Position numbers and translations under genes: made by a program. Positions 581 through 63,475 of a DNA stretch of 64,000 bases are shown here, piece after piece. Origin of the DNA: Adineta ricciae. Its lineage: Eukaryota; Rotifera; Eurotatoria; Adinetida; Adinetidae. The stretch is from NCBI GenBank assembly GCA_905250025.1, contig CAJNOJ010000045.1:372001-436000 (forward strand). Direction: 5' to 3'. The notes under the pieces were generated by a model. It was not told where the DNA came from. It saw only the letters and a program-made list of their open reading frames with translations, and ran no database searches. Numbering within the stretch: position 1 is the first letter of the stretch; every line of letters starts with the position of its first letter.

Positions 581-1545
581 TTACATATGTCGTGAGAGAC
601 CAAAGTTTTGGCCTGATTGATTCGCACCTTTACTCATGCCTTCGTTGAGTAAACCGAGTGTAGCTTGTCCGGCACGTAATTGATCTTCGCTAAATTCTCG
701 GACATTTACATCGGACATTTTCGGACCGAGTGTTGGCCCATTGAACTTTTTTTTCTGTGCCTGAACGAAAACAAATACATGCAATCAAGATCAACATTTC
801 AAGATATCAAACAACACTCACATTGCGACCGAGTGCAAAGATGCACTGGGTTACTTGAGGAATATTATGTTTTTCGAAAAGATCAATCGTTTGGAAAAGT
901 TCCGCATCGCCTAGACCATAAGCACGCGCAGCATTTTCTATAAAAGGAAGTCGTAAGTATCGAAACAATGATCAGCGAGAACACTTACGAAAAAGTGAAA
1001 TATTTTCGCGGAGTTTAAATGAGCCACCTGATGTCGCATATTTAGGAATAGCACCTGGTTGAAGTTTGTTCATTAATCTGATACATATTTATATAGAAAC
1101 ATAACTACTGACGAGTGAAATAACTAGACGAAAACATACTTGCACAAGATGACACCGTCCTTGAGTGCATCTTCGTAGGAACCGCTCGGGAACTTCTCTC
1201 CGATTACTGCTTCTATCCACTCTTGTGCTTCTCGATCGATGTTCGGATCACGCTTTGCTGCGATCTAAACAATCAACTATCAGTCAGAAACAATCCAAGG
1301 ACGAAAAATAAAGGATATTTATAGACATTAAAAGACCTATTTAGTCATATCCCGGGGATTTTCTCGCACTGACAAACGATGATATCGATCTGATAATGCT
1401 TTGCTCGAATAACAAATAACCGACATCCCTCAATCTCATCGTCAAAATAAGAAAGCATATAAATAGGTGCTTCGATGTAGTATATCTATTTCACCTTTGC
1501 TTTATTAGCAGCCAATGATCCATACGCAGGTCCGACGAATGACAT
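581..1545 (-). CDS. Calponin/transgelin-family muscle protein (Mp20-like)
   Basis: A five-exon gene of about 186 residues encoding a small actin-binding protein of the transgelin/SM22/Mp20 type. It starts MSFVGPAYGSLAANK. Exon 2 carries the start of the calponin-homology domain (REAQEWIEAVIGEKFPSG, then DGVILCK), exon 3 LINKLQPGAIPK, and exon 4 the end of the CH domain (TQCIFALGRN). The last exon holds a single C-terminal calponin-like repeat (GLLNEGMSKGANQSGQNFG). One CH domain plus one calponin repeat is the normal layout for the family, and length is typical. It is expected in muscle and cytoskeleton, stabilising actin filaments. Introns are short and GT-AG. An AG lies close before the ATG but has a weak pyrimidine tract. 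Assignment to the family is firm; the exact paralogue is not. Confidence 0.93.
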
Positions 1546-2247: not shown

Positions 2248-2726
2248 TTCTTACGGTAGGTGCTTACATGAATGTAATCTGAACCGAATGTTATCGATGT
2301 GTATGTGCACAGTAAAATGAAGCAAGAAATAGAATCATAGAAGATGATATGAAAGCTTGCAAATATTGTCGTCCAACTAACTAACTCGAGTAACAGGACT
2401 AATAAATATCTCTTCTTTCTGGTTCCATCTTCCCTCTTTTTTTTTCTTCTTGTCAGCTGAGATGAAAAAATAATCATCGGAGGTTGTACGAGGAGAAGTA
2501 CAACACATCCTTGACCGAAGGAGACAAACTGATAATGGAATCCAATTATCATTATCCACATGTAATAACAACATCATCCTTGTACGAGCTAGTTGAAAGA
2601 AATTTTCTCGAGCTCAACATAGAAATAACCTTTGAAACTTGGTAATTAACAATGGCAGAAAACAAAAGTTCATCGATCGAATACTTCGGTTTTTTTTCTT
2701 TATTTGGAACATCATTTTATAGTAAA

Positions 2727-3629
2727 TTATCTTAGAGAAAATTCTTTTAACTGCCGGACAATGTCTGCTGCGTTACCGTCGAATCCGATGGCTCGCTTCT
2801 CTTTTCGAGCATGAATAGGCACATCCGGTGCATGCATATTTACACGAATTAATCTGACGTGTGGAAATCTGCTAACCAACTCATCCATGGGCCAACGGAG
2901 TACGCTTGGAGTATTGAAACCAACACCGATTTCGATAATTGTGCACAGTCCTTGTTTTTGATCGATTGCACGGTGAATAAAATCATGATAACGCTTTCGT
3001 CCGACAGCAAATGCCGATTCAATGAACCAATCTCCACCGCGAACACAAAAAAACATGGGGCCATGGCAACGAGGACATCGCGGTACAAATTCCGATGGCA
3101 CTTCCATCGTTTGTTGGTCAACGTGCGGAAGCCCATGATCAATAAATGGACGAGCGTCATACACAGACTCACGTGAACACGGTTTCAAACATTGAAGGAG
3201 AGAATAGTCTCCTTGCGTACTCAGAAAACGACTCATATCGAATTTATTCTGCTCAAACATGCCATCTGCATTTGTTGTGACAACAAACGAATCAATGGAT
3301 TGATTCGATATGATCGCTTTAAGATCTTGATAAACATCTGTTGGCCCCCAATTGTAACGGCATTTATTAACATGTGTAAACAGGTAGCCCCACATCAACT
3401 CGGGCGACCAATCATGTTTGCCAATAGCGTCATACATACATCGCATAGACGAGACTTGAGTCATCCGAGGATATAGCTTACGAAATGCAGCAACAGATGT
3501 GTAATCAAGACCAACATTATAATGCGGATTAATTGCTGAAGCGGAGAGACCAGCACCGGCAGCAATTAAGATAGAAGAAGAGCTTCGTATCCAATTTGCA
3601 GCTAATGATAGATCAGTAGAATCAGCCAT
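2727..3629 (-). CDS. Class M sirtuin (SirTM-like), NAD-dependent
   Basis: A single-exon ORF of 300 residues from MADSTDLS. The reading frame stays open upstream to 3800, but that extension is hydrophobic and unlike the family. The NAD-binding motif GAGLSAS is at about residues 25-31. The usual sirtuin TQNID is TTNADGMF (118-125), and the usual Q-HG segment is TQGDYSLLQC (138-147), the form seen in class M sirtuins. Cys147/Cys151 and Cys185/Cys188 (CPRC) fit the zinc site, and EIGVGFNTP (233-241) replaces the common GTSL motif. Characterised SirTMs, in bacteria and some fungi, act as protein ADP-ribosyltransferases rather than deacylases and usually sit beside macrodomain, GcvH-like and lipoate-ligase genes. 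None of those partners is seen here. The lack of introns beside intron-rich neighbours and the microbial family suggest horizontal acquisition. Confidence 0.85.
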   Translation of the reverse strand: MADSTDLSLAANWIRSSSSILIAAGAGLSASAINPHYNVGLDYTSVAAFRKLYPRMTQVSSMRCMYDAIGKHDWSPELMWGYLFTHVNKCRYNWGPTDVYQDLKAIISNQSIDSFVVTTNADGMFEQNKFDMSRFLSTQGDYSLLQCLKPCSRESVYDARPFIDHGLPHVDQQTMEVPSEFVPRCPRCHGPMFFCVRGGDWFIESAFAVGRKRYHDFIHRAIDQKQGLCTIIEIGVGFNTPSVLRWPMDELVSRFPHVRLIRVNMHAPDVPIHARKEKRAIGFDGNAADIVRQLKEFSLR

Positions 3630-3789: not shown

Positions 3790-5934
3790 TCATGTAACAA
3801 AATAACTGAATTTGTTAACCTTGCACCACTGACATAGTTTATTTAATGAATACAAAGAAAAATTTCTATCGTAGGTCATGAAGTACTTGATGCCGCTTGT
3901 TTTGCAAAAAATTTCTAAAGGAAACACATCAGTGAGCTTTTGGTATGAATTTAGTGCATTTACTTTAAATGGCGAAAATTCATTGACAAAACTAAGACCG
4001 ATACTTCGAAGTGCAACAACTGGTGTGAATTTCGTTGAATACAAACGGTTCAATGCATCAATGGATAGTAATCTAGCTAAACATTGAGCTTGACGCTGTC
4101 GTTCGTAATCGACCAGATAAGTTAAAGAATCTAGATCATTATTTATTCGAAAAAATTCATTGGAAAGTTTGAAGATTGCTTACTAAAATCAGCACCATCT
4201 CGAACAGCTTGTTCGAGTACTTTAACGAGACATTCGACATCACCAAAACCCATATTTACTCCTTGACCAGCCATCGGATGAATACGATGTGCTGAATCTC
4301 TGAAAAGCATCGCAAATCGATCGCTTTTCCCATTCTACGGGGTTCATCTTACCCGACTAGTGCTAGACGTGGACGAACGTATTGATTTGCATTGAGCAGC
4401 TAAAGACATTTCAAGATTCGAACGAAAAATTCAACAATCAACGTTGCCTACCGATAAAGGAAAAGCAGCTCTGGACCTCGGTTCGATATTGATGATCGTT
4501 GGTGGCCATTGGGATATCGTTGGTGAAGCTAAACGAATAGACAAAGGAGTCGAAGATTCTTTCAACTAAACCAACAAGACTATACCTGGTATAATTTGTT
4601 GCCAATACGATCGTAAACGATCTGTCATCGAAACAACCACATCTTGCTTGTAAGTATCAGATGTCTAAAGATAAAACAAAAAAAATGACCGAAGTATAAG
4701 TTTCGATTTTCTTACAAAAGCTTTATTAATTTCATCAACAAATTGCTCATCGGTTAAGTTCATCATTGACTTATGCATCGACTTTGGTACTGTCCATACC
4801 AGCGAACTGTGTGTATTACTTAACTAAAAGAAATACAAGGCGTGGTGGATAATCTATCGTCAAATTTACTTACCGGTAGACAAGCGATTGGACCTGTAGG
4901 TAAAAATCTTTGCCAGGCAACAACGTTATCTGGCGTCTAAACATCTTCAATTGGAAATCAAGAATATCTTTTAAATTCAACAAACATTATCTGCTAATTG
5001 TAAGGTTGCGACAATACCGAATTGATCGTAGTTCCATTGAATTGTTGAAATCCCCGCCATCTCACGAATACTTGACTGATACCCATCAGCTGCAATCTAA
5101 ACGAAATCCATTCGTACTATAAACTTCCGTGCAGAAAAAAAGAACGCACTTACCAATAGTCCTGTTTGAAGATTTACTTTCTCGTCTTGTAACTGTACAC
5201 GAATAGAGTTTGGATTATACTCAAACTTTTTCACTCGAGAATTTAATCGTAGTTCAATATTGAATTGTTTTAGTCGTTCGAGTAAACATGCTTGTATTAC
5301 ATCATTTTCAACAATGTAAGCAAGAGAATCTTCGCCCGCTTGATTCGATGGATCAAAAGCAATCAACGAATCCGAACACGCATCCCAAACCCGAACAGAA
5401 TCAATAGAAATCACTCATTTGAATGTTTTTTTTTCGCCGAAGATTCTACCTGCATGCGAGATACTTTTTGAACACGAACCGATTTCATCAAATCCCATGC
5501 GCCCAGTTCTAGAGAAAATCAATTGGAATGAAATTATTCATCTTTTCATTCAATACTTCGAAACAGATTGACTGATTGAGTGTTTAGAGCACAAACACGA
5601 TTACTGTACGGTTGATTTTTGGAAACGTTCGGTAACTTGGATTGAGATTCCAAAAGGACTATTTTACGGTTTTTGAAGAATGGAGATGCCGCTGAAAAAT
5701 ATTCGTAATGAATTTAAATCGAACAAATGAGAGATTTTTACCAAAGGCGAGTGCCATGGCACTTCCAACGAGTCCACCTCCTGCAATTGTAACATCAACA
5801 TTTTCAGCAGGCACAGGTGGATTTGGCCAGTCATGGCTCACCGTTGCTCCTGATGATACGGAATACGAAGAGAATCGTATTGATACTAATGAACGACGTA
5901 GAGACAATAATTGTCTCATTCGTAGTAACTTCAT
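3790..5934 (-). CDS. COQ6: Ubiquinone biosynthesis monooxygenase COQ6, mitochondrial
   Basis: A multi-exon FAD-dependent hydroxylase for C5-hydroxylation of the ubiquinone ring, on the matrix side of the inner mitochondrial membrane. The N-terminus is basic and Ser/Arg-rich (MKLLRMRQLLSLRRS), as for a mitochondrial targeting peptide. The Rossmann FAD motif is VTIAGGGLVGSAMALAFG. Family blocks follow: YSNRVCALN, MQVWDACSDSLIAFD-like, YIVENDVI, ADGYQS-like, WQRFLPTGPIA-like, and after an intron the second FAD motif GDSAHRIHPMAGQGVNMGFGD. The C-terminal family block (RLYSTKFTPVVALRSIGL) is present. It is followed by about 50 extra residues before the stop at 3790, which vertebrate COQ6 lacks; a missed intron or later-evolved tail are both possible. 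The stop is 160 bp from the sirtuin start on the same strand. Confidence 0.93.
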
Positions 5935-17009: not shown

Positions 17010-20000
17010 CTAATCTTCATCACTAACTTCCAAATCTTCAGGTGCTTGCTCTTCTTCTTCTTGGCCCTCAGCTGCTGCTGCTGTTTCTTCTTCTTCTCCT
17101 TCTTCCTCCTCCTCTTCTTGTTGTTCCTGTTCTTCTTCACCCTCAGCAGCTGGTGAGCTAAAACAGAGAATGCAACTGAAATATCCGAACAATTACCACT
17201 AATACTTACCCTTCGTTATCGTCTTCAGCTGCTTGTTCTTCTCCTTCTTCCTCATCCTCCTCCTCCTCTTCTTCTTCTTCTTCTTGATCTTCGGCTGGTG
17301 GAGCTGCTGGACGCGATGGCTCATTATCCGAATCATCGTCGCTACTCGATATCGTCGCTTTTGACTTGTATCGGCCAGCGGGTTCAGATTGTCGATGTGA
17401 TGTCTAGACATGCAATGTTAATGAAGCCTTTGTCATCAGACAGAAGTAGAATAAATACCTTTGATGAACGTTTCGATCGATTTGCCTAGAATGAAATCCA
17501 AGAATACATTCATAGACAATCCTCTTTGTTTCTCTTACTGATTTTTTAGATGTTGACTTTCGTGGAGATTTTTCATCATCACTTTCTTGCTCATCAGCGG
17601 ATACCGGTTCGTCGTTGTCTTGAGAAACCTCCTCATCATTTGTTGTAACACGACTAGATCGTTTCTTATGGCTTGATTTCTTTTTACGTTTAACATTTTC
17701 ATCATTTTCATTTTCACTATCACTTCGAGCGATGGTTTTCCGTTTCCTATTCAAATGCGATCATGTATTCGTTTTGATAATGAAGATCAACCTACTTCGA
17801 TGATTTTCGTTCACGTTTATCATCGTTCTCGTTCGATTTTCGTGCTCGTTTCTTCTGAAGTTTGTCGGTGTTATTAATAAGATCAGTGGTATCGTTGATA
17901 AACTCCTCTTCATCTTCGCGTTTTTGTCTCTATTTTAAAAAAAAAAGAAGAAGACGGCGATGCAACATTCTTGTACTGGAAGTGGTAAATGCGATTTGAA
18001 AAAATACCTTTTTCGTTCCACCAGTTGCGCGTTGGCTTTTCTCCGATGTAACTTGCGGTTCAGCAGTAAGTAGATTCTTGGTACGTTCAACGAACTCTTG
18101 ACGTTTTTCGCGTTCCTTTTGACGACGCTCATCCTCTTGTCGACGTCGTTCTTCCTAAAACAGGAGAGAGTTTTGTTTGAAAATGAATACAACCCATGAT
18201 TCCAAAATGTTTACCTCTTCTTGAAGCTGTTTCTCTCGTAACTTTCGTCGCTCTTCATCTTGTTTTCGTCGTACGAGTTGCTCTTCTTCGTCCTTCTTTC
18301 GTGCACGAATCTCGTGGTAAGTCGATTGAGATAATAAATCCGAACATTGTTGAGCCTCTTGCGTAGCTTGATTCAAATCTAGTCGGTGTGGGTCACCATG
18401 TTTACCAAGCCATGTGAATGACCTATAGAATCGAATGAAATCATCTTCTATTGTGTGTGTGCGCGTCTCCCAACTTACTTTTGAGCTATTCGCAATTGAT
18501 CAATTGCTTGAAGAACAGATGCTAATGTCGAATTTTCATCCTTTAAGATTTCCTGTGCTAATTTCTGTTGTACTAAAGCAATATTATACATTAGTGTTAA
18601 ATCATGAGGTGCAACACGTCGAGCATTCAATAGAGCATTGTGCGCTTCGCTTAAACGATTGCCTTTGACAAGCGCACGAGCAAGATAAGTCAATACTTCG
18701 ACGTTGTTATATTTGTAGAATTTTTTCAGACAATTTTCGTACATTTGCACGGCAGGAATATATTGTTTCTGTTCGACATAGATATGTGCGATATTGAGCC
18801 AAACGTCGGGCATGTCGGCAGTGGCTTCGCGAACTTGAGCGAAAATATCCCGAGCTTCGTTTAAATAACCCTTGTGAGCTAGAACACAACCAACGCCGTT
18901 CGCTGCCCATATGTTACGATTGTCGTTTTTGAGGACAACTTTGTAGACTTGAAGAGCACGCGCTTGATGACGTTTTTCCTAAGCATAGAAAAATACACAA
19001 GTGATACTTGAGAAAAAGTAATTCATCAACCATCTTACTCTCTCTTTATCTCGAGATGGCATATACAACGTCTGTAACCAAATATTTCCCAAGGAAATCA
19101 ACGCATAAGAATCATTTGCCGTTTGTGGATTATGTAAAATGCGCTCGAATTTTCTCTGTCCCGGTCTCCATTCTTGTTTGGCTGCATGTAAATTTCCGAT
19201 CATGGTCCATGCATCGGGAGAATTATGATTGATTTCCAAAGCATCTTTAAACCAATCAGACGCACTGTAAATTTGTCCACGATCACGTGCCATACAACCC
19301 AAACGAAGTACACAATCGACGTACTTCGGATGTTCACGTAAAATTTCTTTGTATAATGTTTCAGCTTTATCAAATTCGAACGATGCTTCACATACACGTG
19401 CCAAGTTATATCTCATAGTCACAAGAATCGAATTCGCATAGGCAGGTTCGGCTTCACAAGCCTGTTCGGCGTAGGATATTCCCTTTTCGAAACATTTTCG
19501 ACTTTCTTCATAATTATTCAAACGGTAATGCAATGAACCCATGTTGTTCAACATTTCTATAGGTGTATCTCTACCATGGACTTCACGAATTAATCTCGAC
19601 GCTGTCAGATAAGCATCCAATGAGCCTAAACAATAATAGATGAAAACTACGTTTGATCAGCAAGCTTTTATGCATACCTTGTAGATCGACACCTTCGAGA
19701 ATTTCTGCCAATTGAATCCAGGAATCGATATCATGTTCATCGTGTTGTGTTACTTTTTTCAAGAATTCACGAGCTTTGTCTCGTTTATCTTGATCGGATG
19801 ATTCGCCATAGATACTAGCTAGGATTTTCATCGATTCATGATCATTGGGATGAATTTTCAAGATTTTTTCAAAACAATCACTTGCATTAGCCGTATCTTC
19901 TCTTTGTAAATACATCTGTCCAAGTCCGAATAGAGGTAGAACAAATTTTTCCGGTGCTAAATGAGTCGCTTGATAGTAATAACGAAATGCTTCTTCGTAA

Positions 20001-21092
20001 TCGCGTTCAGCATGATGAGCTCGAGCTAAATGATAACAACTCTCCGCTCGCATCGCTTCGTTTTCTGTATAGTTCAGTGCATGCATTGCTAATTGACGCA
20101 CACGAGTATATTCTTTTTTGAAGAAGAAATGATTAGCCAAATGATTCAAAACCATTGGATTCTGTGGATCGTATTGATAAGCGCGCGACAATTTGATGAC
20201 ACCTTGTTTGATGGATTCAGGTGCTCGCATATTCAATTCGAGTATAGCTAAGCCGACTAATGCTCCGACGCATTTGGGATCGACTTCAATGGCACGATTG
20301 AATGCTAACTCAGCTTTGTCTAATTTGTTCAGTTTGGCAAATGCATTTGCGAGACCAACACGAATGCCGGCGGAATTTTCCGGTGAATATTTCAATGCAC
20401 GTTTATATAAATTCAAAGCTTGTCGATAATCTTTCTTGTTGAATGCAATACAAGCTCGTCCTAGCAATGCAGGAATATTATTTTGCATTTGATTAAGTAC
20501 GAAATTGAATTGTTGTTCAGCTTGATCCATTTTATCACCCTCGAGTAAACAAATATAAGCTCGGCCAAGTAAATGATTGAGATCGTACATGAGAATTTTA
20601 TCAGCGTGAGTATAAAGCAATGTTGCTTGGGTGAAAAATTCACGTTTTTTGTCTTTGGCTTTCTCGCGATGACCACGTTTGACGTAATAAGCAGCCAGAG
20701 TATCTAAACAACGCATTTGATCGGTTTCTTGAGCGCGATGACCAGTTGTTTGTTGTTGTCGTTGATTGTTAATTTCACTACAGGCGGATTTGAGAATTTC
20801 CACAAAATCCTTTTCTTTATCTTGACGATAATACTCTAACTGAAAACGATGCTTTCAAAAAGAAGAAAATCATCAAGAATACTCACAGCAAGTGTCACCC
20901 AGATATGTAACGGGCAGTTTTCTTGCTGCAGAATCGCAAGTACTTCCTGGCCATCGGGTAATTGATCGAGACTGACTTCGATGACCTGTGCGTCAAGAAA
21001 GCGTTCGAAAGGTACGAATCAATGCGAACAAAACTCACTTCATCACCGGAATGCAATGGAATTTCAATGGAACGATGACCTAGTTCAGTCAT
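17010..21092 (-). CDS. CTR9: RNA polymerase-associated protein CTR9 (PAF1 complex)
   Basis: A large multi-exon gene, similar in size to human CTR9 (1,173 residues), for the TPR scaffold of the PAF1 elongation complex in the nucleus. The start is [18 protein letters not shown], matching the family N-terminus, and exon 2 continues [17 protein letters not shown] long array of tetratricopeptide repeats follows with near-identical family blocks ([71 protein letters not shown]). Then come a highly charged coiled coil ([20 protein letters not shown]), Lys/Arg-rich nuclear-type sequence and an acidic Glu-rich tail ending [29 protein letters not shown] acceptor ends 14 nt before the ATG. The stop codon is 158 bp upstream of the DMAP1 start on the same strand. 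Confidence 0.97.
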
Positions 21093-32350: not shown

Positions 32351-32813
32351 TTGTAATATAAATAACACGAAGGAGAACAGCAAATTTTGTTCGATAGGTG
32401 TGGCATATATATGCATAGAATAAATGCGTCACACAATTGACGATGATACCTTCAAGCGAGACCACTTGAAATCCTTTCATATTCGAAACATGACCCACAC
32501 CCACGAATCAAACATACTCACCTGATTCTTTTTTTTTTATTCATTCATAGAAGTTCTCTCAGATTTCTAGCAGTTTTCTCATGGATTCCTCTCCGCCCAC
32601 ATGCGTATCCATCAACAATAAATATGATCTTCGAAGCAAATAGATTAAAGAATTCAAAACCATGTTTTCAATAACAAAAACGAGGAATGACTAATTTTTG
32701 TATTTATCGGATACGAATACAAGTATATCGAATATCGTTTCGGTGGTGTTGCTTCGTCTTAAATAGCAAGGAAGAGAATAAAATATGCTATAATCAGTTT
32801 TATCCACATCGAA

Positions 32814-33893
32814 ATGAAGTTACACATTTGGATATCGTTATATTCTTTCCTCGCTTATGAAATTCACCATGTCTCATCGATTACCTATTCCTGTAACCGT
32901 GCAGCTGAATGTGGTTGTTCAAAAAACAATGCGGTTTTGACGAAAATCGTCGGCGGCGAATCAGCCGTTGAGTCAAGTTGGGCATGGGCTGCATCATTAC
33001 AAAAGCTAACTGCAGGACATTTCTGTGGCGGTACAATTATTTCAGCGTCACATATTCTTACAGCTGCGCATTGTGTGGAAGATACTTCTGATATTGTTCG
33101 AAATGTTAAGGTCTTTGTTGGTATCGATAAATTATCGAATATACAGGTTCCAACGGCTCAACAGCGGTCTATTGTACGCGTCTTTTCTCATCCTCAATAT
33201 AATCCGCAAACTCATGCTAATGATATCGCTATTTTGCAATTAGATAAACCATTGAGTATCTCGAGTGCAAACGGTACTCCACGAGTATGTTTACCATATG
33301 TTGCTCCAACAAGTATGACTGGTGACTATCCGTTCCTTCCATCGACTCTAGTTGCAATTGGATGGGGCGTATTAACATCAGGCAGTTCATCAATATATTT
33401 TAATCAACATTTACAACAAGTCACATTAGCTACGATCGGTTCGGATCATCGTATGTGCAGAAGTGTGATTCAGAATCGTCGACTTCAGTTCTGTGCTGGA
33501 GTTGTAGGCGGAGGAAAAGGTAACTAACAATTTGTCTACATTCTTCTGTCCATACATATCCAAAATTATCTTTCAGATACATGCCAAGGCGACTCAGGAG
33601 GACCACTGATGCATTTCGATGACAAAGAACGTCGATGGGTACTAGTTGGCGTAACTAGTTACGGAATCCGATGTGCTGATCCAAATTATGCTGGTGTTTA
33701 TACGCGTGTATCAGTTTACCGCGATTGGATTCGATCCATTGTTGGTAGCGGTTGTGCAGAAATTCCAATTAATGGCACTGGTCGTGTGACAACAAACTCG
33801 GCACAAAACGTATTAATGCCTTATTATTCATTAACAGTTTCATTATTTTCTTTCATGTGCGCGATCTTTTTTAATAACATTAATAAATGTTGA
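32814..33893 (+). CDS. Trypsin-like serine protease, possibly membrane-anchored
   Basis: Two exons (32814-33519 and 33577-33893) give 340 residues. A hydrophobic N-terminal signal region ([20 protein letters not shown]) leads into a Cys-containing propeptide and the activation site [20 protein letters not shown]. The catalytic triad is complete: His in TAAHC, Asp in [10 protein letters not shown] and Ser in GDSGGP. Asp six residues before the serine (DTCQGDSGG) predicts trypsin-like cleavage after Lys/Arg. The domain ends [11 protein letters not shown] tail of about 45 residues follows, ending in a hydrophobic run ([17 protein letters not shown]) like a GPI-attachment or membrane-anchoring signal. 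The enzyme would act at the cell surface or outside. The gene has no close acceptor before its ATG. Confidence 0.92.
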
Positions 33894-36635: not shown

Positions 36636-39600
36636 TTAGTTCAGATCGCGTTTTTCGCTATTACAGATTTCCCCGGATGGGCAACTCAAAAATTTACACG
36701 ATGAACATTTGAAGGGAATGGTATAAAAAAGTACAATCAACGAAATGAATAGTGCGATCGTCAGCGCTAGCGATGTGCTTACAACTACCAGTCGGCGAAT
36801 GTTTTTTCGAAAACTAACATCGGGAAAAACGATCATGTTCAACAGAAAACCAATCAGAAAACCAAAGCATTGAGAATAATTATCAACTAATGGAAGTAGA
36901 CCGACAGTAAGGAGAAGTATTGAACATATGAGAATTTTGAAAAATGGAACCCAAGGTCGTTTTAATGAACGCCAACCGAGAAACAATTCACTTAAATAAC
37001 AAGCAAGAATAGCTAATTGACCACCGCCAGGTCCAACTTGAATGGAATCGCGTAAAAACAACGCACTTGCTAAACTACCCACGAAACCAGAGACCACATA
37101 AATGATCATAACACGAATACAACCGGCTAATTTCTCTAATGGACGCATAATTAAATATTGAAATATGATAGTAATTAGTAGATGAATCAAACTAAATGAA
37201 ACATATAAATTGCGTTGATTAAGAAAAAAATGTTTACCCAGCATGAATGAAAATAACTGTCCAGAAACGATAAACTTGATCAGGAACACGAACTAAAGAG
37301 GAATAGCTTATGAATGAAAAGATTTCGTGTATTTGATTCTTTCGCTTACCGACAAAGAATTCTAACATTCCACAAACACTTTGTATGCAATCAACCTAAA
37401 CGCAATCATCAAGTTTTATTTTGCTGATTATTGGATAATTGTGATCTAGTTACTTGGGAACAGAGATGAGCGCGTGGATGAAATATTCCACGTCGACGTT
37501 GACAATCATCTTTTGACGTCAATAGACAACTTCCCAGTACTCCCGTACAGCACGGTCTTGCTACGAATGGAAAATATGAATTATTCCATTAGCAACTCTT
37601 TCATTTCAACATACCAAGATTTATACATTGCATATGCGGATAAAGTGATGCATTGCCTGCAATTCGACTATGATCTTGCTTCAGACAGACCTAAGGAAAA
37701 ACATCAGAAGAATTTAAGAATGAATATCGAACTTACTGGCCATTTGGCAGCATTCGAAGACCATTTCAAAACTTTTGAATCAACGACGGTCGATGCCCAT
37801 GATCTATCATCTTCACGTGGTATATTTCCAACTGATTGTTTCGTACAAATTCTACAAGAAAATAAATCTCGTTCACAGGTACATATCTTTCCTACTCACT
37901 CTGGTGTTAGTCCGCAAACAGCTGGATAGATAACATTATGTTGATCTCTCAAACTTTTACTTTTGGTCGCAAACCGATGCCAAACTAAACCTGCTCGTGG
38001 CTAAATAGTAGAAAAGTGGTAACTAGTTTATCGATTTATCGAATGTGAAATTCATACCAAACATTGTTGTGAAATGGTTTGCATACATCGACCTGTCGTT
38101 GAATCGATACAACAGCCCGACATACTTTCTAATCTCGCTTGTTTTTCATATCGACCCTCAACTTCATCGTGCCGTCGCATACATGGAGTATATTGTGCCC
38201 CTAAACGAATTAAATCAGCAGGATACGGGCCAAACCATGGGTTCATTGTCAAGTCTTGTCGTTGATGTTCGAAAATGGATGTCTTTTTCTAAAAGAACCT
38301 CGATCATCGAAAATGTTCTTGTGCTATTTCATTTAACCTACCGATTGTGTCGATGTTAATGGCGCATAGCCATAGACAATCAAAGAAACAATACAAACAA
38401 AGATTTGTACAAATGTCACCCAGTATGTAAAATAAGGACGATGGCATCGATAGGATTGTTGAATATCCACTAATTTCTTCGATCGAGGTTGTTTCCGAAG
38501 AAAAATTTTATTCAACAGACGAGGTCGAACGAATTCTAAACAAATCATTTGCTTTTATGAAAACAAACGGCGTATAATGATCAATTACTAGCTTTAGGTA
38601 TTGAAGAAAGATCATTATCAGTTTGCGTATACTTTGTGCTGAAAATTTATAATGAAAACAAAACTCTGTTGACATAACAGAAAGATTTCTTTACCACAGG
38701 TGTTTATCTTTCGTGTCATATTCATCCATCTTAGTTGACTCATCGACTTTAGGTTTAGTTAGAACAATATTTTTCAGTGATATCTCATTCTCGTTCATTG
38801 GTTCTTCTTTATCCGTTTCCTGCAAATGAAAAAGCAAAATCATCGTAATCTTGCTTCAGATTATCGTCAAAAACAACAAAGATATAAAGAACAAAACAAA
38901 TAAGCATATCGATATATATATATATGTTCTTAACCTCATGATGTGACATGGATGCACGCATAGATCTTCTACGTGTCATCTCGTCTACCTTGAAATAATA
39001 ATAATCAATAAGAAAAAGATGAAATATTTTCTGTCGATGTATCAAAACTTACGACTAGAAAATTACGAACACCTGACACAGCCATTCCCAATACTGACTC
39101 GCGCTTGGCATTCGAACCATCTGATTCCATGCTACTCGATGGTTTCATTTGTGATGCGTTCATAATCGGTCTAGTGGAGATGACGTTTAATGGAGAGAAA
39201 ACATTCGCAATTCTAAGTTCACCTTTGTTCGGTTTCTGTGCCTATTTCGTTCACCACTTCATTTTTCAATTCGCCAGCGAACATACTATTTTTACTGAGA
39301 AAATTGTATCGTCGCTGTTGCCAGTTGTCTCGATGTATCACTGGACTAGCGGCAGGCGCTAGGATTGGACTAGTGTTGAGTTGCATGGCACTGAAGCAAA
39401 AAGAAGATAGGATTCGAGAAAAAAAGGATTAACCACATCGAAGAAAAAGCTGTAAATAATTTATTTCATTTATCTACCGATCGTGAAGGTCGATTTGTTC
39501 AGAAACAGTGCGTCTCTTTCTCGTTGGAGATATTGCAGCCCAGCCTTCAGGTGATTGTTTCACAAGTAAACCGTTAGAGGGTAATGGAACATGTGATAAC

Positions 39601-55238: not shown

Positions 55239-55248
55239 NNNNNNNNNN
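55239..55248. other. Assembly gap (10 N)
   Basis: A run of ten N with the same 211-bp sequence on each side. The natural reading is two contig ends that overlap and were scaffolded instead of merged. Confidence 0.98.
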
Positions 55249-59887: not shown

Positions 59888-61011
59888 TTAATCACCTTTT
59901 GGCCGTTGGATCGGCTTAATAAACAACACAATCGGTGTACGATTGAAGAATAAAACAATATTTTGACCAAGTTGTACTTTTTTCTCCATTAAAATCGTTA
60001 CTATTGGCGTATTTGCTACTGTTTGTTGAATAAATGCACGTTTAGCCGACACCAATGCGATTAAATCATCACAATGAATTTGAGAGAGCCGCTTGCCATG
60101 CTCTTGAACAAGTTTGATAATGTCGGTTTCTTGAATAACACGAAAATTCATTTCCGTATCTTCGCGAGAATCAACCACCGAGAGGGCAATAAGTAATTGC
60201 GCCGCGTAATATGTAGTCATAACAAGGATTTGGGAATGTGTTAATGGTGTAACAAAGCGATCTAGGGCAAGAAGAGCATCACTAGTTGCAAAAAGTATAC
60301 CACCTAATCGAAATGAATGAAAAATAAAGAAATCGGTTCGTTAGTTGCAAAATTTATCCTACCGAGAAAACTGTAAAACCGTGTCCATGTCCATTCATTG
60401 TTATCAATTTTAATTCTTGCCATTGCTCGCCAAATCATAAACATTGTCAGACCAATGTATGCATAAATCTATGCAAATACAAACTTTCATATTTTTCATT
60501 CGAACAGATAGATTAACAAACTTACCACATACGATAGCGGTTTATAGAGAACACCGGACAGCATTAGGTAAATAACAATCATTGGTAGAACCATAAAGGG
60601 TAACATGAACACTCGTAATGGGCGCATACCATACGCCGTCGCATAGAGAACATGTGATATTCCGAATGCGACAACTCCATGAATAAAATAGGCGTGATCA
60701 TAAACAAGTAATGCATCACCAAGTAGAGAAAATGCTAAACCAGTTAAGATTCGTCGTGAATAAGAATATTCGAAACCTCGTAGATTAATTCCATGTAGTA
60801 AAATAAATAAGATTAAAGAGCATATTGGTAAACATTTAAATACTAGATAGAACATATCAGCGGTTCTGTATTTCGCTTTGGGAAATAGGATGAAGAAAAT
60901 GGCAACAGTTTTGAAAAACGGTACTAATTTAGGGCCATTGCATTTCAATACGCTCGGCAATTTAGTCAATATAGTCGTCTGTGTGACGAATTTAAGCTGT
61001 GTTGAAGTCAT
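59888..61011 (-). CDS. TMEM86: Lysoplasmalogenase-like protein TMEM86 (YhhN family)
   Basis: A three-exon multi-pass membrane protein starting MTSTQLKFVTQTTILTKLPS. Hydrophobic segments include TVAIFFILFP, FKCLPICSLILFILLHG, LPFMVLPMIVIYLML and YAYIGLTMFMIWRAMA. The YhhN-family acidic motifs are seen in SLLGDALLVYDHAYFIHGVV (GDALL) and, after an intron, GILFATSDALLALDRF. The family hydrolyses the vinyl ether bond of lysoplasmalogens, and TMEM86A/B act in the ER membrane. After the last membrane segment (YYAAQLLIALSVVDS) the protein has about 85 extra residues, rich in basic and hydrophobic residues, which is longer than the vertebrate proteins. A CATACTTTTAG acceptor lies 1 nt before the ATG. 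Confidence 0.88.
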
Positions 61012-61653: not shown

Positions 61654-63475
61654 ATGATGATCATTAATCTATTTCTATTGTATTATTTGATACAAACAAC
61701 TCTATCAGATGTTAATGTGGTAGGATAAGATCGTAGTTTATCACCAAGATGATTCTTTTTATTCTATTTCTTCTTAGTATAATATTACCAGTGAACTACT
61801 CAAAATTTTCGATGATCAAAATGCTCGTTTTGGTCCAGCGTTGCCCGCTGCAGGATTGAAGGTAGAATGAGATTCTAGAACGAGATTTACCCTATTGCGC
61901 ATTTACGCTGACAGGGCTATATAACAACGACGAATCCACCGAACGGTTGTCATAAAATGGATCCACCACCATTTGGTATTCATAAAGATGGATACCATTG
62001 GATTGCACTTATTCCTCGCACAAGTGGTACAGATTCTTGTGAATTTGTTGTGAAAGTAATATGCACATATTAGATTTTGAAGAAAAATGTTCTTTTCCTC
62101 GAACTTTCAGGTCGAAAATGCTCAACAAGCGAATTTTAGTGCGGTGATTATATATAATTATGAAGACACCTTACTACCAATGGGATCATCATCAAAAGGT
62201 GAGCAGAGAAAGAGATCATATCTAATACTTCTCTATTATGATTGTAATTTAGATGTTCATATTCCATCAACAATGATTACACATACTGATGGCTTGTTCC
62301 TGATTTCGCATTACTTGTATAATAAAACAACAGTGAATGCTACTCCAATGTAAGCATCCGCTTCTTCGTAGTGTAAAAGAATTCTTCAATGTACATAATA
62401 GGTATTATGTCAAATTAATTCCTGAACCACCATTTAAACTTGGAGTCTACATGATACCATTTATTGTTGTTATAGCTGTTTCATTTCTTGGTCTCGTTGG
62501 TTTTATTGTATGAATTCCTTTTATTGCCTGTTGATATTGATGTTGAAGTGAAATAATGTCCTTTTTGTTTGTTTAGTTGGTGAAATGCCATTTGGAACGA
62601 CGTCGAACGCGTCGTCATCGTTTGCCACGATCAGCCCTCAAACAGTTGAAAGTGAAAAAGTTTGTGAAAACTGACCCGTGGGAGGTGTGCATTATTTGTT
62701 TGGATGAATTTGAAGAAGGAACGAAGCTACGTATTCTACCTTGCGATCATGGTCAGTTACTCTAGGTTAAAACCATCTCCATAGATTGATTTGTTCGTTT
62801 ACAGCATATCATATGAAATGTATCGATCGTTGGCTCATTGACCATCGACGACAATGTCCAGTGTGTAAACGCTATGTCTTTCCTAATCATGATCATTCTG
62901 ATGATGAAGAAAACGGTGATCGTCCACAACAAAGAGCATCTACAGAACACACACCGTTGATAAGTTCAAGTACCACCGATACCATTAATACTCCATCAAA
63001 TCTTCATTATTTGCCTCGTACGTGTCTTTACCTCTCACAACAATCATTGTCTTTGTGTCTTTCAGACGTTCGTCGCATGCTCAATCCGCTACAGAATGAT
63101 GTTCGCAGGATTTCAAATGTATCAAGCAATTCATCAGGTAGTATCGAAAATCTGTCTTCGTCGTCGCGACAAACTGCGACAACCACAGAAATCATATTCA
63201 ATCAACCATCAATCAATTCTCGACACTATGGTAGCATTGATGAGTCGTCAAGAACGGCACAACGTCGTGCTCATCGTTACTTTGATACATTCAATGAAAC
63301 AACGAACGATATTACGACATCGATGCGTTCAATCGTCGACCAGACCAATGGTATCGAAACAACTGATGAAGAAGATGACCAAATGCATTCAGTTATCACA
63401 AGTTCGGAAGATAATCCATCTTACGTTCCTACTGACGAAGAATCGGCTAGAGACACGACTAACATACATTTGTAA
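61654..63475 (+). CDS. RNF13: PA-TM-RING E3 ubiquitin ligase, RNF13/RNF167-like
   Basis: A multi-exon gene for an endosomal/lysosomal ubiquitin ligase. A signal peptide (MMIINLFLLYYLIQTTLS) leads into a protease-associated luminal domain (FGPALPAAGLKGYITT, WIALIPRTSGTDSCEFVVKV, AVIIYNYEDTLLPMG). TM (LGVYMIPFIVVIAVSFLGLV) is followed by a basic stretch (CHLERRRTRRHRLPRSALKQ). The RING-H2 domain is complete: CIICLDEFEEGTKLRILPCD, HAYHMKCIDRWLIDH, CPVCK, with all eight ligands (C3H2C3). The C-terminal tail is Ser/Asn/Thr-rich (SNVSSNSSGSIENLSSSS). A possible 5' acceptor (TTTATCAG) ends 2 nt before the ATG but is weak. A short in-frame intron-like segment (63019-63065) could be spliced or retained. 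Confidence 0.93.

What the first reader, a model, noticed from the sequence alone, without database searches (positions are those of the whole stretch)
2727..3629. Intronless class M sirtuin (SirTM) in an animal genome
The protein has the SirTM hallmarks seen directly: TTNADGMF in place of TQNID, TQGDYSLLQC in place of the Q-HG segment, a CxxxC/CxxC zinc site and EIGVGFNTP. SirTMs are known from bacteria and some fungi, where they ADP-ribosylate a lipoylated GcvH-like carrier in operons with macrodomain hydrolases. Here the gene sits between COQ6 and calponin on the same strand, has no introns while neighbours do, and has no macrodomain partner in the window. Horizontal acquisition, common in bdelloids, is the simplest reading.
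Basis: partly seen in the sequence, partly recalled or inferred. Interest (0 to 1): 0.75.

Follow-up and report, generated by a model that had tools for sequence, protein, structure and literature searches.

The report
Microbial-type ADP-ribosylating sirtuin in animal
An animal chromosome carries an intact gene for a kind of sirtuin enzyme otherwise described from microbes, which tags proteins with ADP-ribose instead of removing acetyl groups; it was most likely taken up from a microbe long ago.

Summary
Window 2727-3629 (-) is an intact single-exon ORF of 300 aa. In the PDB it matches only the two class M sirtuins held: the Fusarium macrodomain-SirTM fusion (8rsn, E 9e-52) and S. pyogenes SirTM (5a3a, E 2e-22). 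The key residues are kept: N120, Q139 (replacing the sirtuin His), R197, four zinc Cys, GVGFNTP. AlphaFold gives a confident model (pLDDT 91.6) whose best PDB matches are the same two. It lies between COQ6 and calponin in an animal genome, with near-host codon usage and no Zn-macrodomain found in the window. In all five trees holding both rows it is sister to Fusarium Mfs1, with moderate support, among bacterial SirTMs. Horizontal acquisition is the best reading; the donor is only moderately resolved, as one fungal sequence was available. 'Bdelloid rotifer' could not be tested. Most likely it is a stand-alone protein mono-ADP-ribosyltransferase with unknown substrate, erasure being left to host hydrolases (inferred). 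A 7-residue insert in the NAD-loop region is unique (0 of 96 relatives) and is the main doubt about activity.

The parts
2727..3629 (-). SirTM-like gene, single exon, 300 codons plus TAA
3210..3278 (-). active-site segment: T118-T119-N120-A121-D122 ... Q139-G140 (Asn118 and Gln137 of S. pyogenes SirTM)
   Evidence: alignments; residue roles from PMC4518038 passages; coordinates checked
3066..3191 (-). structural zinc site, C147/C151 and C185/C188
   Evidence: each of the four Cys conserved in 96 of 96 relatives; coordinates checked
3039..3041 (-). R197, equivalent of catalytic-pocket Arg192
   Evidence: Arg in 92 of 96 relatives; PMC4518038 passages
2907..2927 (-). [quoted passage not shown]
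3513..3533 (-). 7-residue insert I33-V39 (INPHYNV) after GAGLSASA in the NAD-loop region
   Evidence: absent in 96 of 96 relatives; low model confidence there (block 31-40 mean pLDDT 58)
2699..2704 (-). AATAAA 22 nt after the stop codon, likely polyadenylation signal
   Evidence: sequence
3790..5934 (-). COQ6 gene (ends approximate; the 3' exon is assigned by recalled resemblance), multi-exon, upstream neighbour
581..1545 (-). calponin/transgelin-like gene (ends approximate), multi-exon, downstream neighbour

Best explanation
A functional class M sirtuin (SirTM) that an ancestor of this animal acquired horizontally, more likely from a eukaryotic microbe with a Mfs1-like gene than from a bacterium, long enough ago for codon usage and signals to become nearly host-like. 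It binds NAD+ in a Rossmann fold. Asn120, Gln139 and Arg197 position the nicotinamide ribose. Because the deacylase histidine is Gln, it should transfer ADP-ribose to a protein side chain and not deacylate. It lacks the eraser macrodomain that accompanies it in fungi (fused) and in most of the bacterial loci examined (neighbouring gene), so reversal would fall to the animal's own ADP-ribosyl hydrolases of the MACROD/TARG1 kind. Shown here: sequence, predicted fold, active-site residues, locus, tree position. Inferred: activity, direction and age of transfer, cytosolic/nuclear site, erasers. The substrate is unknown; a stress-related role is a guess from fungal and bacterial relatives.
For: phmmer hits only to SirTMs. 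Active-site residues kept. AF2 pLDDT 91.6, pTM 0.90. Foldseek: 8rsn 3.6e-25 and 5a3a 1.3e-23, then canonical Sir2 at 8.8e-12. Canonical sirtuins fall outside with support 100. Sister to Fusarium Mfs1: SH-aLRT 96; UFboot/SH-aLRT 94/88, 95/96, 96/96 with L-INS-i and 93/95 without the long SpySirTM row. AU tests against grouping with Competibacter, two myxobacterial sets and actinobacteria gave p 0.028, 0.035, 0.034 and 0.022. Mean log codon frequency -1.05, inside the range -0.92 to -1.12 of the eight window ORFs used as the reference. GC3 0.34 against 0.26-0.51 for the other long ORFs listed, some of which may be non-coding. Animal neighbours.
Against: The unique 7-aa insert sits in the NAD-loop region and could impair or change catalysis. 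Only one eukaryotic SirTM (8rsn) was available, on a long branch, so the sister relation may be partly long-branch attraction; the supports are marginal (two of the five trees starred only just, one by SH-aLRT alone, two below the star). Identity to the best bacterial relatives (38-42%) equals that to the fungal one (38-41%). The AU tests named groups after the trees had been seen. Codon usage lies about 2.4 SD below the simulated host expectation (-0.987, SD 0.027), though far from uniform choice (-1.30). No expression, population or sister-species data.
Confidence: 0.72

Rival explanations
1. Vertical inheritance: SirTM was present in early eukaryotes (it is known in fungi, Phytophthora, Entamoeba) and was lost in most animals but kept here.
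For: The closest solved relative is eukaryotic and the two are sisters in all five trees that hold both. [quoted passage not shown]
Against: It would need repeated loss. The eukaryotic SirTMs described in the passages read are fused to a macrodomain, this one is not. The opisthokont sirtuin survey recovers the four major classes and seven known families and discusses a few further ones; 'class M' and 'SirTM' do not occur in it, and it set aside a clade of microbial-like animal sirtuins as probable contamination (PMC9486876, passages and section 6). That survey concentrates on early-branching animals, so this is weak.
Confidence: 0.12
2. Direct transfer from a bacterium of the Competibacter/myxobacterial/actinobacterial clade.
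For: Identity to these reaches 38-42% over most of the protein. Bacterial genes are intronless and separate from the macrodomain. With the Fusarium row left out, the gene's nearest rows by path are Competibacter-type.
Against: AU p 0.022-0.035 against four such groupings; sister relation to Fusarium.
Confidence: 0.25
3. A diverged or repurposed enzyme: NADase, NAD sensor or inactive binder, altered by the loop insert.
For: Insert in 0 of 96 relatives, at the pocket loop, low pLDDT there. The position of nicotinamide-contacting Phe42 is Leu, though so it is in 22 of 96 relatives, Fusarium included.
Against: N, Q, R, zinc Cys and GVGxNTP are kept; the ORF is intact.
Confidence: 0.15
4. Microbial contaminant or chimeric assembly.
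For: Read support could not be examined; a sirtuin survey dismissed microbial-like animal sequences as contamination (PMC9486876, section 6).
Against: No N between 1 and 55238; host genes within about 160 nt and 1.2 kb (ends approximate), near-host codon usage, AATAAA after the stop; no closer microbial match than 42% in the searches made.
Confidence: 0.03

Closest known systems
Foc1Mfs1, macrodomain-fused SirTM of Fusarium oxysporum (PDB 8rsn)
   Same: SirTM half aligns with residues 6-273 at 38-41% identity; same fold, Q for H, zinc Cys, GVGxNTP
   Different: Fused to an N-terminal Zn-macrodomain; the crystallised sequence reads Ala where the animal gene has catalytic Asn; no 7-aa insert
S. 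pyogenes SirTM (PDB 5a3a), extended GcvH-L/LplA2 operon type
   Same: N118, A119, D120, Q137, R192, GVGx[NT]TP all have counterparts
   Different: 26-28% identity; operon with Zn-macrodomain, lipoyl carrier and ligase (PMC4518038, PMC11490716 passages); no insert; Phe42 is Leu here
Candidatus Competibacter and myxobacterial SirTMs (L005, L095-L099; L007, L106-L109)
   Same: 38-42% identity by the search scores; separate SirTM gene
   Different: Zn-macrodomain match in each of these loci; bacterial; no insert in those aligned
Canonical sirtuins (SIRT1-7, CobB/PF02146)
   Same: Rossmann fold with zinc module (Foldseek 8.8e-12)
   Different: HG with catalytic His; other side of the tree with support 100

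Membership tests
class M sirtuin (SirTM) | QG instead of the catalytic HG | tested here: met
   Q139-G140; Q and G in 96 of 96 relatives aligned
class M sirtuin (SirTM) | Asn118 and Arg192 equivalents needed for activity | tested here: met
   N120, R197 (roles in PMC4518038 passages)
class M sirtuin (SirTM) | GVGx[NT]TP class motif | tested here: met
   GVGFNTP 235-241
class M sirtuin (SirTM) | four-Cys structural zinc module | tested here: met
   C147, C151, C185, C188; metal binding itself not testable
class M sirtuin (SirTM) | falls in the SirTM clade apart from other sirtuins | tested here: met
   100 SH-aLRT split from nine canonical bacterial sirtuins (one of them trimmed badly, 38% of columns filled); closest solved structures are SirTMs. 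Human SIRT1-7 were not in the tree
class M sirtuin (SirTM) | genetic linkage or fusion to a Zn-macrodomain | tested here: not met
   None found in the 64-kb window. The trait is not universal: 12 of 84 microbial loci showed none in the fetched stretch. The rest of this genome could not be searched
class M sirtuin (SirTM) | protein mono-ADP-ribosyltransferase activity | not testable with these tools
   needs protein
Mfs1 (macrodomain-fused SirTM) | Zn-macrodomain and SirTM in one polypeptide | tested here: not met
   ORF starts at the SirTM domain; about 160 nt to the likely COQ6 stop; no macrodomain match
lipoyl-GcvH-L SirTM operon | GcvH-L, LplA, Zn-macro beside SirTM | tested here: inconclusive
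   Neighbours are COQ6 and calponin and no Zn-macro was found; GcvH-L and LplA were not specifically searched in the window

The most novel reading that the evidence does not exclude
An animal lineage domesticated a fungal-type SirTM by discarding its eraser half: a free writer of ADP-ribose with a remodelled NAD loop, working on a new, non-lipoyl cytosolic or nuclear substrate and reversed by the animal's own MACROD/TARG1 hydrolases, so that a foreign modification was wired into an animal signalling system.
Probability: 0.3. Interest if true: 0.7.

Novelty: new member of a known kind. Interest (0 to 1): 0.45.

Why it matters
SirTMs are described from bacteria, archaea, fungi and a few other eukaryotic microbes. 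No held paper contains both 'SirTM' and 'rotifer', and no animal SirTM showed in the listings seen (21 of 21 papers; only the top rows). An animal copy without a linked eraser asks whether a sirtuin-based ADP-ribosylation system can be grafted onto animal ADP-ribose signalling, and gives a tractable way to look for SirTM substrates outside the lipoyl operon, which Ariza 2024 calls elusive (PMC11490716, passages). It also bears on whether microbial-like animal sirtuins set aside as contamination (PMC9486876, section 6) were in part genuine.

Tried and rejected
Viral source: two scans of viral contigs gave no relative (no pattern match; 151 pattern matches, none confirmed), and the phage collection gave one 5.5-kb Staphylococcus record covering 57% of the query. 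Anti-phage defence models: none. Canonical sirtuin assignment: rejected; human SIRT1-7 themselves were compared only as structures. Fused macrodomain exon upstream: rejected, there is little room and no match. A micro-intron in place of the 7-aa insert: rejected by eye, no GT..AG in those 21 nt. Identifying the host species: no suitable collection; Rfam gave no match. Published bdelloid transfer papers: in PMC3499245 and PMC4632278 a term search of the main text found neither 'sirtuin' nor 'Sir2'; supplements were not available. More eukaryotic SirTMs: none obtained beyond 8rsn. Rows dropped: the 41- and 42-row trees use hand-chosen subsets (31 of the 87 SirTM rows plus ten new ones; the same plus L115; 41 of 87). 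L100-L104 (27-28% identity) were left out. The canonical row L088_sir2 was the right frame but cut too early, so only 38% of its columns were filled; it stayed in that tree. L094 gave no usable row.

Full report
What is there. The minus-strand ORF 3629-2727 encodes 300 aa without interruption. Pfam finds no family up to E 10 and NCBIfam only a weak generic sirtuin match (E 3e-4, 19.7 bits against a cut-off of 243). Against all PDB sequences two and only two distinct chains match at E up to 10: Fusarium Mfs1 (8rsn, 8.9e-52, residues 6-273 on chain 315-574, the SirTM half) and S. pyogenes SirTM (5a3a, 1.6e-22).

Active site. From the passages of Rack 2015 that I read (PMC4518038), SpySirTM Asn118, Gln137 and Arg192 are needed for full transfer activity, Ala34, Phe42, Ala119 and Asp120 touch nicotinamide, and GVGx[NT]TP is class-specific. 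The counterparts here are N120, Q139, R197, A121, D122 and GVGFNTP; the Phe42 position is Leu41, as in 22 of 96 relatives including Fusarium. In an alignment of 97 SirTM rows (some near-duplicates), Q139, G140, the four zinc Cys and the GAG motif are identical in all 96 others, N120 in 95 and R197 in 92. The one exception at N120 is the crystallised Fusarium sequence, which has Ala; I could not tell whether that is natural or engineered.

One oddity. Seven residues (INPHYNV, 33-39) are inserted after GAGLSASA, just before the position of the nicotinamide-contacting Phe42 of SpySirTM. None of the 96 relatives has anything there. It is the poorest block of an otherwise confident AlphaFold model made with 33 relatives (mean pLDDT 91.6, pTM 0.90; block 31-40 at 58, the other blocks 83 or more). 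Foldseek ranks 8rsn (3.6e-25) and 5a3a (1.3e-23) first and canonical sirtuins well behind (8.8e-12 and weaker).

Surroundings. Upstream on the same strand is COQ6: hand-joined exons match TIGR01989 at 4e-102, below that model's full-length cut-off, with nine gaps between exon peptides, eight of 47-64 nt and one of 126; eight of the nine show GT..AG ends by eye. Downstream is a calponin/transgelin gene. A further gene in the window is CTR9, matching entries named CTR9 homolog (human, as I recall) at about 1e-159 and the Paf1-complex entry 7xn7 (yeast, as I recall) at 8e-20, so the chromosome is very probably an animal's. I could not test that it is a bdelloid rotifer. There is no N from 1 to 55238. 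The gene's GC3 is 0.34. Its mean log codon frequency under the usage of eight window ORFs is -1.05, within their own range of -0.92 to -1.12; a host-like draw of the same protein gives -0.987 with SD 0.027, so it is slightly off the host optimum, while uniform codon choice gives -1.30. AATAAA lies 22 nt after the stop. The distance to the likely COQ6 stop is about 160 nt, close enough that a shared, trans-spliced transcript is possible (inference). 'Intronless' fits transfer but is weak, since other long uninterrupted coding stretches lie in the window.

No partner in the window. A profile from 72 Zn-macrodomains found in microbial SirTM loci, run with all filters off over all six frames in pieces of 20 aa or more, gave nothing better than E 0.23; the SirTM profile found only this ORF (5e-81, next 2.1). 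Very short exons could be missed. The whole genome is not held, so a macrodomain elsewhere is not excluded. In microbes the link is common but not absolute: 72 of 84 loci had a Zn-macro match in the stretch fetched and 12 did not; some of the 12 are cut by contig ends, others were fetched with full flanks.

Relatives. The plasmid collection gave 28 records, all under 60% identity. Searches with the protein in groups around known loci (group names are inferred from the centre, the tool gives none) gave: order of Competibacter 9 of 40 genomes at E<=0.001, five of them at 1e-57 or better, the centre included; and at E<=1e-30 its class 1 of 369, the centre itself; the phylum of Corallococcus 5 of 195; the class of Herbiconiux 3 of 394; the phylum of a Marinifilaceae bacterium 1 of 375, the centre itself; a verrucomicrobial phylum 2 of 288; each of these counts includes the centre. 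The best identity reported was 42% (G480). No recent donor is visible, in keeping with an old transfer or an unsampled donor.

Trees. With 96 rows including nine canonical bacterial sirtuins (one poorly trimmed), class M separates with support 100, and the animal gene and Fusarium Mfs1 are sisters at 96 SH-aLRT, inside a set of Competibacter, myxobacterial, actinobacterial, Vibrio/Shewanella, one Marinifilaceae and some Bacillota SirTMs. Careful trees of chosen subsets give 94/88 (41 rows), 95/96 (41 rows), 96/96 (42 rows, L-INS-i) and 93/95 without SpySirTM. With either of the two left out, the other has Competibacter-type rows as nearest by path, so the neighbourhood does not depend on the pair. 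AU tests gave p 0.028, 0.035, 0.034 and 0.022 against joining the gene to Competibacter, two myxobacterial sets and actinobacteria; these groups were named after the trees were seen. The two branches are long and Fusarium is the only eukaryotic comparison, so I read this as moderate support for a Mfs1-like eukaryotic donor and good support for origin within the microbial class M.

Mechanism. Most likely it is a protein mono-ADP-ribosyltransferase. NAD+ binds between Rossmann fold and zinc module, nicotinamide leaves, and ADP-ribose passes to a protein side chain (Asp27 of GcvH-L in S. pyogenes, PMC11490716 passages); no deacylation follows, since Gln replaces His. In microbes a Zn-macrodomain reverses the mark. 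Here it would have to be a host MACROD/TARG1-type hydrolase (recalled knowledge, not tested). The N-terminus MADSTDLSLAANWIRSS has two Asp and one Arg and does not look like a mitochondrial presequence (inference, no predictor run), so the mitochondrial lipoyl proteins of animals are not the obvious targets; Zn-macrodomains of Mfs1 and minimal-pair type also fail to demodify GcvH-L, which hints that those systems have other substrates. The substrate is open.

Literature. The term SirTM occurs together with sirtuin in 21 held papers (listing) and with rotifer in none. [quoted passage not shown] The opisthokont sirtuin survey found little evidence for transfer and set aside a microbial-like animal clade as probable contamination (PMC9486876, section 6). 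Rotifera top a compendium of animal gene transfers (PMC13342648 passages). Term searches of bdelloid HGT main texts found no sirtuin (PMC3499245, PMC4632278), nor did one in the A. vaga radiation paper (PMC10809525). The A. vaga spaceflight paper lists one gene labelled sirtuin-2, by its label not this class (PMC12220480 passages). Only open-licence PubMed Central text was searched, and no supplements.

Verdict. A real, intact class M sirtuin in an animal chromosome, very probably an old horizontal acquisition. Known kind, unexpected host, eraser not linked, with an unexplained loop insert.

Noticed in passing
window 3513-3533 (-): Seven-residue insert INPHYNV in the NAD-loop region of the SirTM, present in 0 of 96 aligned relatives; origin and effect unexplained.
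   Followed up: partly
window 18478-20854 (-): CTR9 gene (Paf1 complex); its 19586-20854 ORF was used here as evidence of an animal genome.
   Followed up: partly
window 32763-33524 (+), 36639-37292 (-), 59891-60340 (-), 62771-63472 (+): Trypsin-like, rhomboid, YhhN and (below cut-off) RING-finger ORFs by Pfam.
   Followed up: no
PDB 8rsn SirTM domain: The Fusarium Mfs1 sequence has Ala where the other 95 of 96 relatives have the catalytic Asn; natural or engineered is not stated in the passages read.
   Followed up: partly
L012, L015, L019, L020, L021, L035, L045, L049, L059, L067, L072, L080: Microbial SirTM loci with no Zn-macrodomain match in the fetched stretch; some are cut by contig ends, others may be true stand-alone SirTMs.
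   Followed up: no
L100-L104: Sirtuin-like ORFs in the Competibacter order at only 27-28% identity to this protein, perhaps another subclass.
   Followed up: no
G999 (genome of L045): One small genome holds two SirTM matches.
   Followed up: no
window 55239-55248 and 56618: Short runs of N, the only ones in the window.
   Followed up: no
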